Assembly (NCBI RefSeq): GCF_900106785.1
Contig: NZ_LT629845.1
Span: 1 to 64,000 of the forward strand
Direction: 5' to 3'
DNA from: Prevotellamassilia timonensis
GTDB taxonomy: Bacteria > Bacteroidota > Bacteroidia > Bacteroidales > Bacteroidaceae
DNA length: 64,000 bases
Both the position numbers and the translations under genes were made by a program. The notes below the pieces were generated by a model that was not told where the DNA came from, did no database searches, and saw only the letters and a program-made list of their open reading frames with translations. This document shows positions 58,599 to 63,228 of the stretch, piece after piece; within the stretch, counting starts at the first letter, position 1, and each line of letters starts with the position of its first letter.

Positions 58599-60815
<2,217 letters not shown>

Positions 60816-61002
60816 TTGTTTATAGGGTTTAGAGTTAAAAGTAAATTGAACATTGGCTACACCCCGCAGTTGTCTCAATGTCTTTTCCTTGAGCTTGTTG
60901 CATGGTGTAGGCACGTTGTCCAAAATTGTTTCTTTTCAAAAAGTAGAGTCGTTGTAGATAATAAAAGCTTGCTATAGTCTTGTAAGCTTGTTCTTGTGTG
61001 GC

Positions 61003-61160
61003 AAGGTAGTGCAAGGTGAGTGCAGAATGTCAAACTTTGTTTGAATATTTTGCCGAACCGCGGCCTTACCTTCTGCAAAGGTAGTGCAAGGTGAGTGCAG
61101 AATGTCAAACCTTGTTTGAATATTATGCCGAACCGCGGCCTTACCTTGTGCAAAGGTAGT
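61003..61160. repeat. 75-bp tandem repeat carrying the pflB promoter
   Basis: Units begin at 61003, 61078 and 61153 (AAGGTAGTGCAAGGTGAGTG), two complete and one partial. They differ at only a few positions. 61161-61294 between this and the next F2 half holds no gene. Confidence 0.8.
61077..61109 (-). promoter_or_regulatory. pflB promoter (minus strand)
   Basis: Read on the minus strand: TTTG (61109-61106), 21 bp, TACCTTTG (61084-61077). A second TACCTTTG at 61158-61151 in the next repeat unit lacks a well-placed TTTG. The transcript leader would be about 255 nt. Confidence 0.65.
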
Positions 61161-61294: not shown

Positions 61295-61728
61295 GTTCAG
61301 TAAAACATAAACATGCGAACGGACTCAAGCACCAAACTCAAGCACTAATGGGGGCGACGCGTCTCGCGTCGGGAAAATATGCAGTTCTTGACTTAGCTAA
61401 TGTACCGTCCGGTTGATGGGGTAAATGACATTGTGGGTAATGAACCTCGTTCTGTGTTTTCAAGGGCTATCCGCCCTTGCGCCGCTTACCGCGGTAGACA
61501 TAAGTACATAAGCTACATAAGTGACATAAGGCTGACGCCGTGATTTTTTACATAAGTAGAGGCAGGGCGACCAGCCCTGCCTGTAAGATACATAAGGCTG
61601 ACGCCGTGCTCGCAGACTCAAGCACCAAACGCAAGCACTAATGGGGGCGACGCGTCCCGCGTCGGGAAAATATTCAGCTATTATTTAGTGTATCTTTCCT
61701 TTTAATTATTCCGACGCGGGACGCGTCG
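61295..61728. repeat. F2 copies and structured repeats left of the IS110 element
   Basis: An F2 half at 61295-61378 (GTAAAACATAAACATGCGAA ... GACGCGTCTCGCGTCGGG), then a non-genic stretch with TACATAAG words (61498-61610) and a hairpin AGGCAGGGC/GCCCTGCCT (61560-61581), then an F2 unit at 61617-61728 whose right half stops at GACGCGTCG where the IS110 element begins. No gene is supported. Confidence 0.75.
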
Positions 61729-61789
61729 CTCTAAGTTTGCAGCAGTTAAGCGGCGCAGCCGCTAACCTGTAAACATTGTTAAATAAGAC

Positions 61790-61821
61790 TTTGTAGTTAG
61801 AAGCTTTTTCTATTACTTTTG
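61790..61821 (+). promoter_or_regulatory. Promoter of the bridge RNA / IS110 transposase
   Basis: TTTG (61790-61793), a 20-bp spacer and TACTTTTG (61814-61821): a near-ideal Bacteroidota promoter inside the IS left end. Transcription would begin near 61828. Confidence 0.75.
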
Positions 61822-61827
61822 TCGTAG

Positions 61828-61975
61828 TAAAGTAAAGGAATAGCTGGTTGGGAGGAAAAATACACCGTCGCCAGTCCGTAGAGACTATTGGGGGCATTAA
61901 GACCCCTCCCAACCAAGCTGCAAAGACTAAATAGAATGCTCATAAAAATAGTTAGAGTGGCAGTCATCACAGCTT
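61828..61975 (+). ncRNA. IS110 bridge RNA
   Basis: Two successive stem-loops. The first (stem GGTTGGGAGG 61846-61855 with CCTCCCAACC 61905-61914) is the target loop. CGTCGCC (61866-61872) equals the left target plus core; an AGTC...GACT hairpin (61873-61886) follows; CTATTGGGGG (61885-61894) is the complement of CCCCCATTAG, the core plus right target, with one mismatch. The second (GCTG and GACT, 61917-61928, with AGTC and CAGC, 61962-61973) is the donor loop. ATAGAATGCT (61931-61940) equals the right end of the IS plus core, and TTAGAG (61952-61957) is the complement of core plus its left end (CTCTAA). This is the architecture described for IS621 bridge RNAs. Confidence 0.85.
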
Positions 61976-62004
61976 TCGCTACCTTTAAAAAACCATACAA
62001 AGAT

Positions 62005-63057
62005 ATGAAAAAGTTCATTATTGGAATCGATTTTTCCAAAGAAACAGTAGATGCTAGTATCGTACAGAAAGAACAACCAGAAACTCTCATTGCGTACAAG
62101 AAGTTTAGAAACAACCTGAAAGGAGTTGATGGACTGATTGCTTGGGCCAAGTCAAAGGTTGCACAAGACGGAGAAATCATCTTCTGTGGTGAAAACACTG
62201 GTACATATAGCACACTCTTCAGTGATGAATTGACAGATCGTGGCTTTATCATATGGATTGAGCATAGCATGAATATCGTACGTGGCATGGGTGATGTAAG
62301 AGGGAAAGACGACAAGACAGACTCTCTGCGTATTGCCTCTTACGCTGCACGTTTCTATGATAAGATGAAACCTTACGTACGTCCCAAGGACGAAACGCGT
62401 GTACTTAAGACACTCCTTGCTAAGCGAGATAGACTCAAATCCTTCTTAAAAGCGGAAATTACTAACACAAAGGAGAATCCTTTAATGCTGCAGGACTCCA
62501 ACATAGCAAGTAGCATAAACGAGTTTTTCAAACGCCTAGAAGAATCCTTACGGAAAGAACTCAAGGAACTTGAGCGAATGATTCTCGATGTTGTCATGAG
62601 CTGCTCTGAATACGCAAAAAACTTCAATATCCTGACTTCCATGAAAGGTATCGGTTTGATTAATGCAGTCGCGCTCATAGTCTATACAGACAACTTCACC
62701 AAGTTCAACTTTAACCACCGCAAGATTGCTACATATTGGGGGGTTGTTCCCTTTAAGAACGAATCTGGTACTTCCGTCAGGAGAGGTACACATGTAAGCC
62801 CCAAATGCAACTCTTGGCTGAAAGCGCTTTTGACCGAAGCCACGCTTTGTGCAATTAGGTATAACTCACGCATAAAAGCTTATCATGATAGGCTTATGGC
62901 ACGAGGGAAAGCGATCGGTATAGTACTTAACAATTGCAAGAACAAAATGCTCAAGATTCTTGTTGCAATGGTACGTGACTCCAAAATCTATTCAGATATG
63001 GACGTATCAAAGGATCCTCATACGACCACAACTACTAGCTCAATAGTTGTATGCTAA
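62005..63057 (+). CDS. IS110-family transposase (bridge-RNA-guided recombinase)
   Basis: 350 aa from ATG 62005 (MKKFIIGIDFSKETVDASIV); longer in-frame starts to 61888 overlap the bridge RNA. The N-terminal DEDD RuvC-like domain shows D8 (GIDFSKE), E60 region (FCGENTGTYS) and DDKTDS (about 100-105). The C-terminal transposase_20 domain has the helix-hairpin-like LTSMKGIGLINAVALIVYTD (about 210) and the Ser-containing NESGTSVRRGTHVSPKCNSWLK (about 253-275), where the catalytic serine lies in IS110 enzymes. Intact, so it may be active. Confidence 0.93.
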   Translation: MKKFIIGIDFSKETVDASIVQKEQPETLIAYKKFRNNLKGVDGLIAWAKSKVAQDGEIIFCGENTGTYSTLFSDELTDRGFIIWIEHSMNIVRGMGDVRGKDDKTDSLRIASYAARFYDKMKPYVRPKDETRVLKTLLAKRDRLKSFLKAEITNTKENPLMLQDSNIASSINEFFKRLEESLRKELKELERMILDVVMSCSEYAKNFNILTSMKGIGLINAVALIVYTDNFTKFNFNHRKIATYWGVVPFKNESGTSVRRGTHVSPKCNSWLKALLTEATLCAIRYNSRIKAYHDRLMARGKAIGIVLNNCKNKMLKILVAMVRDSKIYSDMDVSKDPHTTTTTSSIVVC

Positions 63058-63124
63058 CATCGGTATCCAACAGATCCTTTAACAAAAAAACTTGCCAAAA
63101 ATTTGGTCAATAACATAGAATGCC

Positions 63125-63228
63125 CCCATTAGTGCTTGCGTTTTTTTGCAGCACGTTTCAGGCAACAAAAAAGGTTGGAAAGAGCCAAGGCCCTTTCCAA
63201 CCAAACCTATTATTACTTGCTAGCAATA
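63125..63228. other. F2 remnant and terminator-like hairpin
   Basis: CCCATTAGTGCTTGCGTTTT (from 63125) is the displaced right flank of the split F2 palindrome. GGTTGGAAAG (63171-63180) and CTTTCCAACC (63192-63201) then form a 10-bp hairpin that can end the minus-strand gene downstream. Confidence 0.65.

What the first reader, a model, noticed from the sequence alone, without database searches (positions are those of the whole stretch)
61729..63124. Readable bridge RNA: an IS110 element whose RNA matches both its insertion site and its own ends
Seen directly: the F2 palindrome is cut between GACGCGTCG (ends 61728) and CCCATTAG (starts 63125). In the leader, CGTCGCC (61866-61872) equals left target plus core, and CTATTGGGGG (61885-61894) is the complement of core plus right target with one mismatch. 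ATAGAATGCT (61931-61940) equals right IS end plus core, and TTAGAG (61952-61957) is the complement of core plus left IS end. All four guides are in the order and strand sense described for IS621. The stems around both loops, and a promoter placed to make this RNA, are also visible. This gives a natural, complete guide-target-donor set for a Bacteroidota IS110.
Basis: partly seen in the sequence, partly recalled or inferred. Interest (0 to 1): 0.93.

Follow-up and report, generated by a model that had tools for sequence, protein, structure and literature searches.

The report
RNA-guided IS110 element inside REP repeats
This is a small jumping gene that carries its own two-loop guide RNA, one loop matching the genomic repeat it jumps into and the other matching its own ends; it is a clear natural example of the already known bridge-RNA system of IS110 elements.

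Summary
The element (61730-63121 plus a GC core, 1,394 bp) encodes an IS110 recombinase and has a long left end with a two-loop RNA. Four identical genomic copies split the same palindromic repeat at the same point; the site has 507 matches (up to 2 mismatches) here and none in 57 other genomes of the genus. Seventeen relatives (32-43% identity) share the leader. In a fixed register, target guides follow each element's own site (left 102 of 120 nt, right 61 of 80; permutation means 63 and 25; 0 of 100,000 as good). Donor guides follow the ends (85 of 85; 128 of 128, partly built in). A 'handshake' base tracks the target in 15 of 17. Circularisation would join TTTG to TAAGTTTG at 20 bp, a Bacteroides-type promoter. 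The repeat flanks a RAYT-like gene, so it is probably a REP, as for IS621 in E. coli. It is therefore a new member of a known kind. Two oddities: the core ends in C, not T, and the four sites that fit the right guide worst repeat the element's own left tip.

The parts
61730..63121 (+). IS110-group insertion sequence, 1,392 bp without core (1,394 bp with one core copy)
   Evidence: four identical genomic copies; empty site with 2-nt overlap
61728..61729 (+). left copy of core dinucleotide GC
   Evidence: overlap of flank and element
63122..63123 (+). right copy of core dinucleotide GC
61705..61729 (+). left part of the interrupted palindromic repeat (REP-like arm)
   Evidence: inverted repeat I11 with 61647-61671; site count
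63122..63144 (+). right part of the interrupted arm
   Evidence: repeats D3, I10, I14
61627..61671 (-). partner arm of the same inverted pair
61732..61739 (+). TAAGTTTG, -7 type box at the left tip
   Evidence: consensus from PMC7366714 passage. The same box was used as the motif to find the left tips of relatives, so its presence there is no evidence
63102..63105 (+). TTTG, -33 type box in the right end; 20 bp from TAAGTTTG after circularisation
   Evidence: 8 of 15 elements have TTTG at 19-21 bp; shuffle mean 0.18, maximum 3
61790..61793 (+). TTTG, possible -33 box of an internal promoter
   Evidence: 20 bp from 61814; not tested across relatives
61814..61821 (+). TACTTTTG, -7 type box of the possible internal promoter
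   Evidence: TACnTTTG in 17 of 18 leaders, L031 reads AACCTTTG
61833..61987 (+). bridge RNA as predicted (outer stem 61833-61838 with 61982-61987)
   Evidence: outer stem matched by 12 of 100 shuffles
61845..61855 (+). target-binding loop stem, 5' arm (pairs 61905-61915)
   Evidence: 1 of 100 shuffles as good
61905..61915 (+). target-binding loop stem, 3' arm
61866..61871 (+). left target guide CGUCGC (last two = core)
61885..61895 (+). right target guide CUAUUGGGGGC (last two pair with core); one mismatch to the site
61896..61898 (+). handshake guide AUU of the target loop, complement of donor AAT before the core
61916..61920 (+). donor-binding loop stem, 5' arm (pairs 61970-61974)
   Evidence: 1 of 100 shuffles as good
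61970..61974 (+). donor-binding loop stem, 3' arm
61931..61939 (+). left donor guide AUAGAAUGC, identical to the right end plus core
61952..61958 (+). right donor guide UUAGA plus core-pairing GU, complement of core plus left end (one wobble)
61959..61961 (+). handshake guide GGC of the donor loop, pairs target GTC before the core (one wobble)
62005..63057 (+). IS110 recombinase, 350 aa; D9, E63, D103, D106 and S254 invariant in 19 of 19 aligned proteins

Best explanation
An IS110-group insertion sequence that works by bridge-RNA-guided recombination. Shown by sequence: recombinase, element ends, GC core, two-loop leader, guide matches. Inferred: the element excises as a circle; joining its ends makes a promoter (TTTG-N20-TAAGTTTG) that drives the leader RNA (an internal promoter may also do so); the RNA binds the recombinase. 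Its first loop pairs with both strands of the repeat arm (CGTC-GC-CCCCA), its second with both strands of the circle junction (ATAGAAT-GC-TCTAA). The recombinase cuts at the core with an active site of D9, E63, D103, D106 and S254 and exchanges strands, helped by handshake bases in both loops. The circle lands between the repeat's hairpin and its CCCCATTAG tail. The genome holds 468 exact copies of that 11-bp site, so the element has a large and probably mostly harmless landing area.
For: Recombinase: PF01548 and PF02371 over their cut-offs, NCBIfam NF033542 over its cut-off, IS621 and ISCro4 as the two PDB matches (E 2.7e-22 and 3.1e-20). Four identical copies at one site. Register-limited tests: left target guide 102 of 120 over 15 elements (permutation mean 62.9, sd 4.25), right target guide 61 of 80 over 16 (25.1, sd 4.68), 0 of 100,000 permutations as good in either. 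Right donor guide 85 of 85 over 17 elements, left donor guide 128 of 128 over 16, 0 of 100,000 each. Donor-loop handshake base against target position 7: 15 of 17, 0 of 100,000. Later, separate elements from an order-level search: left guide 8, 7, 8 and 8 of 8 in L079, L080, L091, L092 (the last three are copies in one genome). Target-loop stem: at most 5 of 100 shuffles as good in 16 of 18 elements. Junction TTTG box in 8 of 15, shuffle mean 0.18. Exact 11-bp sites.
Against: No RNA, circle or transposition was measured. This element's left target guide pairs at 6 positions only, the next three mismatch; the right guide has one mismatch, and no site in the genome matches CGTCGCCCCCAATAG exactly. 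In the minimum-energy fold parts of the two target guides pair with each other. RNAalifold on the MAFFT alignment was weak (-3.01 kcal/mol, 16 pairs, 10 with changes on both sides). Outer stem, donor-loop stem and donor-loop hairpin reach the 5-of-100 mark in only 10, 9 and 7 of 18 elements; in this element 12, 1 and 75 of 100 shuffles do as well. Poor fits: left L026 and L054 4 of 8 (L054 is cut off by the search range), L073 5 of 8; right L024 1 of 5, L026 2 of 5, and among extra copies L056 2 and L063 1 of 5. Target-loop handshake base 12 of 16, with 380 of 100,000 permutations as good. Left tips were found with a motif that fixes 2 of the 5 tip bases counted, and right ends with a loose motif resembling the donor guide, so the 85 and 128 are partly built in; the ends of own, L054, L058 and L061 come from copy comparison.
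Confidence: 0.93

Rival explanations
1. The recombinase protein itself recognises the repeat's hairpin, and the leader is only an mRNA 5' region; the matches are coincidence or captured flank.
For: REP targeting is described for elements of other IS families too (PMC1525189 passages), and one side of the target is a hairpin.
Against: Relatives with the same leader sit at different sites that their own loops match. Donor guides follow variants of the ends.
Confidence: 0.03
2. The leader is a bridge RNA but this copy set is no longer active, with decayed guides.
For: Left guide 6 of 8; no perfect site in the genome; weak inner donor-loop hairpin.
Against: Four copies identical over 1,392 bp suggest recent spread. 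The 11-bp contiguous match is the length the IS621 screen treats as its target (figure legend passage), and natural IS621 sites also carry a guide mismatch (PMC11208160 section 9). The frame and catalytic residues are intact.
Confidence: 0.1
3. The four copies spread by duplication of a larger segment rather than by four insertions.
For: The copies are identical.
Against: Flanks outside the repeat differ in all four, on two contigs and both strands.
Confidence: 0.02

Closest known systems
IS621 of E. coli (IS110 group) and its bridge RNA (PMC11208160, PMC11208158)
   Same: DEDD recombinase with a serine in the second domain; long left end with a two-loop RNA; order and strand sense of the four guides; 11-bp target; handshake guides; promoter at the circle junction; insertion into REPs
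   Different: distant protein (phmmer E 2.7e-22, residues 5-324); core GC here and C at the end of 17 of 17 left junctions, instead of CT with near-invariant T; boxes of Bacteroides type; longer right target guide
ISPa11, ISPpu9, ISPpu10, ISRm19 (IS110 elements listed with REPs in a table of PMC1525189, passage seen)
   Same: all copies of an IS110 element sit in the REPs of its genome (6/6, 7/7, 7/7, 4/4)
   Different: Pseudomonas and Sinorhizobium; in the passages seen no guide RNA is discussed
IS1111 group (PMC11208160 section 12; PMC11187229 passages)
   Same: RNA-guided DEDD recombinase
   Different: there the RNA lies in the right end and subterminal inverted repeats are 7-17 bp; here the RNA lies in the left end (275 bp non-coding against 64 bp on the right)

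Membership tests
IS110 family, IS110 group | DEDD RuvC-like domain PF01548 plus PF02371 with conserved serine | tested here: met
   residues matched to IS621 by reading the alignment
IS110 family, IS110 group | left non-coding end longer than right, RNA in the left end | tested here: met
   275 bp against 64 bp
IS110 family, IS110 group | short shared core, site-specific insertion | tested here: met
   2-nt GC overlap; 4 of 4 copies at one site
IS110 family, IS110 group | circular intermediate | not testable with these tools
   needs junction PCR or reads
bridge RNA | two stem-loops with internal loops, target loop first | tested here: met
   for the two basal stems of this element; its donor-loop inner hairpin and outer stem are weak, and only 9 of 18 elements pass for the donor-loop stem
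bridge RNA | 5' side of each loop equals the top strand, 3' side complements it, for target and donor | tested here: met
bridge RNA | handshake guides after RTG and RDG | tested here: met
   donor loop 15 of 17; target loop 12 of 16, weaker
bridge RNA | promoter reconstituted at the circle junction | tested here: met
   boxes at 20 bp in this element; TTTG at 19-21 bp in 8 of 15 elements; activity not tested
IS621-like core | CT core with near-invariant T | tested here: not met
   GC here; 17 of 17 left junctions end in C
bridge RNA | RNA expressed and bound by the recombinase | not testable with these tools
   no expression or binding data
REP of a RAYT (for the target repeat) | short palindromic repeat in many copies flanking a Y1 (RAYT) gene | tested here: met
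   507 matches; 11 arms on both sides of the one PF01797 gene found; mobility not tested

The most novel reading that the evidence does not exclude
In this clade the machinery also accepts hybrid sites whose left half fits the target guide but whose right half copies the element's own left tip, so that the right donor guide could read it. Such a site looks like the left junction of an inserted element, which must be recognised for excision. Together with a core in which often only one base (C) is shared by target and donor, and U opposite the other core base in 13 of 16 right target guides and 18 of 18 right donor guides, this would mean looser pairing rules than those stated for IS621.
Probability: 0.35. 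Interest if true: 0.55.

Novelty: new member of a known kind. Interest (0 to 1): 0.4.

Why it matters
It gives a complete guide-target-donor set for a bridge-RNA element with Bacteroides-type promoter boxes, and natural evidence, in a clade only distantly related to IS621, for all four guides and for the donor-loop handshake base. Two elements in one genome, 91% identical but with different target loops (L064, L065), are a ready natural reprogramming experiment. The C-ending core and the hybrid sites bear on how strict pairing must be, and on how excision is recognised, which the structural paper leaves open (PMC11208158 legend passage). It also repeats the IS621-REP partnership with a repeat that, in the genus sample searched, occurs in one species only.

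Tried and rejected
Rfam gave no bridge-RNA match; its only hits (mir-9261, 34.3 and 30.9 bits against a gathering score of 86) lie on the repeat's inverted pair. The genome-contig scan found one contig-edge relative (L021) that holds only the gene's end, and viral contigs none. Plasmid relatives (20 records, 25-33% identity) were not used. A first unrestricted guide test supported the left guide (93 against 69.9, 0 of 100,000) and the right only weakly (58 against 52.2, 488 of 100,000 as good); the register-limited test replaced it. Its search range stops one position short of the guide of L054 (scored 4; 6 by eye). MAFFT plus RNAalifold was too weak for structure evidence; arms were searched per element, and that search picked, for this element's target-loop inner stem, a pairing between the two guides. 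The translation was in the wrong frame and is not used. A one-base core C was considered: it is the only base shared in most relatives, but this element, L032, L059, L060, L061 and L063 share GC, so GC is given here. Structure prediction was not run.

Rows left out of the guide counts: of the hits, L035, L037, L039-L042, L045-L049, L070 and L071 (27-34% identity), partial or contig-edge loci L034, L043, L044, and further copies of elements already counted (those copies are listed), L074, L081-L090 (seen, not scored). L073, L023 count only on the left, L031 only on the right. L026 and L027 are near-identical yet both are counted on the right and for the handshake base; without L027 that base scores 14 of 16, with 2 of 100,000 as good.

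Changed after a second check: the extra copies and a separate order-level set were added, the hybrid-site reading replaced the core alone as the most novel case, and interest was raised by 0.02 for it.

Full report
What is there. Near its end the window has a palindromic repeat pair whose right arm is split by a 1,392-bp insert (61730-63121). The insert has GC on both sides; removing it with one GC restores GACGCGTCGCCCCCATTAG, the uninterrupted arm. The genome holds four copies of the insert, identical over 1,392 bp, on two contigs and both strands, with different outer flanks but the same split point. At an empty site the two flank halves overlap by exactly 2 nt.

The protein. The frame 62005-63057 (350 aa) matches DEDD_Tnp_IS110 and Transposase_20 and NCBI's IS110 RNA-guided transposase model just over its cut-off (141.5 against 140 bits). 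Its PDB matches are IS621 and ISCro4. D9, E63, D103, D106 and S254 are invariant in 19 of 19 aligned proteins. I match them to IS621 D11, E60, D102, D105 and S241 by reading the alignment (shifted by three residues at the third and fourth acid) and passages of PMC11208158.

Relatives. Of 399 genomes of the family 28 matched at E 1e-30 or better (own included), of 58 of the genus 4 at 1e-40 (own included), of 393 of the order 13 at 1e-40 (own included). Identity is 27-43%; nothing closer was found in these samples. Eighteen leaders including our own (relatives 32-43% identical) were aligned. They share a plan: outer stem, target loop, donor loop, gene, and TACnTTTG before it in 17 of 18.

Target guides. 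With the register held, the 8 nt of left flank ending in the core match the guide at 102 of 120 positions over 15 elements, against 62.9 (sd 4.25) when flanks are dealt to other elements. The first 5 nt of right flank match at 61 of 80 over 16 elements, against 25.1 (sd 4.68). No permutation of 100,000 reached either. This element scores 6 of 8 and 5 of 5. In genome G092, L064 and L065 (91% identical proteins, 313 of 345) sit at AAAGTAAC and AGAATGAC with guides AAAGUAAC and AGAAUGAC. Poor cases: left L026 and L054 4 of 8, L073 5 of 8; right L024 1 of 5, L026 2 of 5, and L032, L058, L061 3 of 5. In elements found afterwards in the order search, the left guide fits 8, 7, 8 and 8 of 8 (L079, L080, L091, L092; the last three are copies in one genome). 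Other loci of that search (L081-L090) were not scored.

Donor guides. The right donor guide complements the first 5 nt of the left end at 85 of 85 positions over 17 elements. The left donor guide equals 8 nt of the right end at 128 of 128 over 16 elements (0 of 100,000 permutations each). The motifs used to find the ends fix 2 of the 5 tip bases and resemble the donor guide at the right, so these totals are partly built in. The variable bases still follow: tips TCTAA, ACTAA, TTTAA, CCTAA, CTTAC and right ends ATAGAATG, ATAGAAAG, ATAGATTG, ATAGGAAG, TTAGGAAG each have their own guide. Ends of own, L054, L058 and L061 come from copy comparison.

Handshake bases. PMC11208158 (passages) describes bases after RTG and RDG that pair with the other DNA after strand exchange. 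Here the first such base of the donor loop complements target position 7 in 15 of 17 elements (one wobble, one miss; permutation mean 6.4, 0 of 100,000; without L027 14 of 16, 2 of 100,000). The target-loop base complements donor position 7 in 12 of 16 (380 of 100,000). This element has AUU against donor AAT, and GGC against target GTC (one wobble).

Fold. The leader 61828-61990 folds to -46.7 kcal/mol, z -3.45, 0 of 200 shuffles as good; in that fold parts of the two target guides pair with each other. In a restricted search the target-loop stem passes (at most 5 of 100 shuffles as good) in 16 of 18 elements, the outer stem in 10, the donor-loop stem in 9, the donor-loop hairpin in 7. In this element the counts are 1, 12, 1 and 75 of 100. 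Whole-leader z-scores of the 18 range from -0.2 to -4.9.

Promoters. In the circle, TTTG (63102-63105) would lie 20 bp before TAAGTTTG (61732-61739). PMC7366714 (passage) gives TTTG at about -33 and TAnnTTTG at -7 for B. fragilis, and adds that the -33 motif was not found in Flavobacterium. Eight of 15 elements have TTTG at 19-21 bp, against a shuffle mean of 0.18 and a maximum of 3 in 20,000 runs. Of the other 7, L030 and L058 have TTG at 20 bp, L064 and L065 at 23 bp, and L024, L025, L061 none. An internal pair with 20-bp spacing (61790-61793, 61814-61821) could serve the inserted element.

The target repeat. The 19-nt site has 507 matches with up to 2 mismatches (252 plus 255), against 0 for the reversed pattern, and none in the 57 other genomes of the genus. 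The 11-bp contiguous guide match CGTCGCCCCCA occurs 468 times exactly. Arms often come in inverted pairs about 80-120 bp apart. The one Y1 transposase match in the genome (PF01797, 33.1 bits, cut-off 23) has arms on both sides, 11 within 3.2 kb. I read the repeat as the REP of a RAYT; mobility was not tested.

Hybrid sites. Over 27 right junctions, copies included, the four lowest right-guide scores are L024 and L063 (1 of 5), L026 and L056 (2 of 5). In these four the right flank repeats the element's own left tip at 4, 5, 5 and 5 of 5 bases. Of 26 junctions with a known tip, 3 match it 5 of 5 and 4 at least 4 of 5; further to the right, 12 of 7,610 five-mers match 5 of 5 and 143 at least 4. 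The likeness ends after 5-7 nt, so these are not tandem copies. PMC11208160 section 9 reports that some rare IS621 off-target insertions resemble the donor. I read these as sites whose right half may be read by the donor guide; the sample is small, and none of the 4 later junctions (L079, L080, L091, L092) is of this kind.

Comparison. IS110 elements are known to enter REPs (PMC1525189 passages; PMC11208160 passage and section 9), and bridge RNAs were predicted in 85.7% of catalogued IS110 elements (section 12). The element is a new member. Differences: the core is GC, and 17 of 17 left junctions end in C, where IS621 has CT with near-invariant T. The base before C on the left is A in 12, G in 4 and T in 1 of 17 elements, while on the right it is G in 27 of 27 junctions (the search motif allowed G or A). 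U stands opposite it in 13 of 16 right target guides and 18 of 18 right donor guides. Searches of the open-paper library for bridge RNA with IS110, IS110 with REP and Prevotella, seekRNA, bridge recombinases, IS110 with Bacteroides and palindromic, and handshake guide listed no title on a Bacteroidota bridge RNA; subscription papers and preprints were not searched. That the host is a Bacteroidota is inferred from its promoter boxes and from the named relatives; its genome record is unnamed.

Noticed in passing
L077 1402-2031 (-) (own genome, C15 about 260.8-261.4 kb): A Y1 (RAYT-like) transposase gene has 11 arms of the repeat the IS targets on its two sides within 3.2 kb; the repeat has 507 matches here and none in 57 other genomes of the genus, so it looks like a recently expanded REP family.
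   Followed up: partly
L024, L026, L056, L063 right junctions: Insertion sites whose right flank repeats the element's own left tip instead of fitting the right target guide.
   Followed up: partly
window 61644-61732: Rfam mir-9261 hits on both strands, far under the gathering score, lie on the repeat's inverted pair and are not a microRNA.
   Followed up: yes
L058-L060 (genome G064), right end: The right end of this relative holds at least 35 nt that recur as the right flank of copy L058, as if the element had taken up host DNA.
   Followed up: no
L066-L068 (genome G092): Three identical segments, longer than the element on the left side fetched, with an IS110 gene cut to a 259-aa frame but the leader still present.
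   Followed up: no
window 61003-61152: Two 96% identical 75-bp tandem units on the 5' side of the minus-strand 774-aa frame 58599-60923; that frame looks like a pyruvate formate-lyase from memory, not from a call.
   Followed up: no
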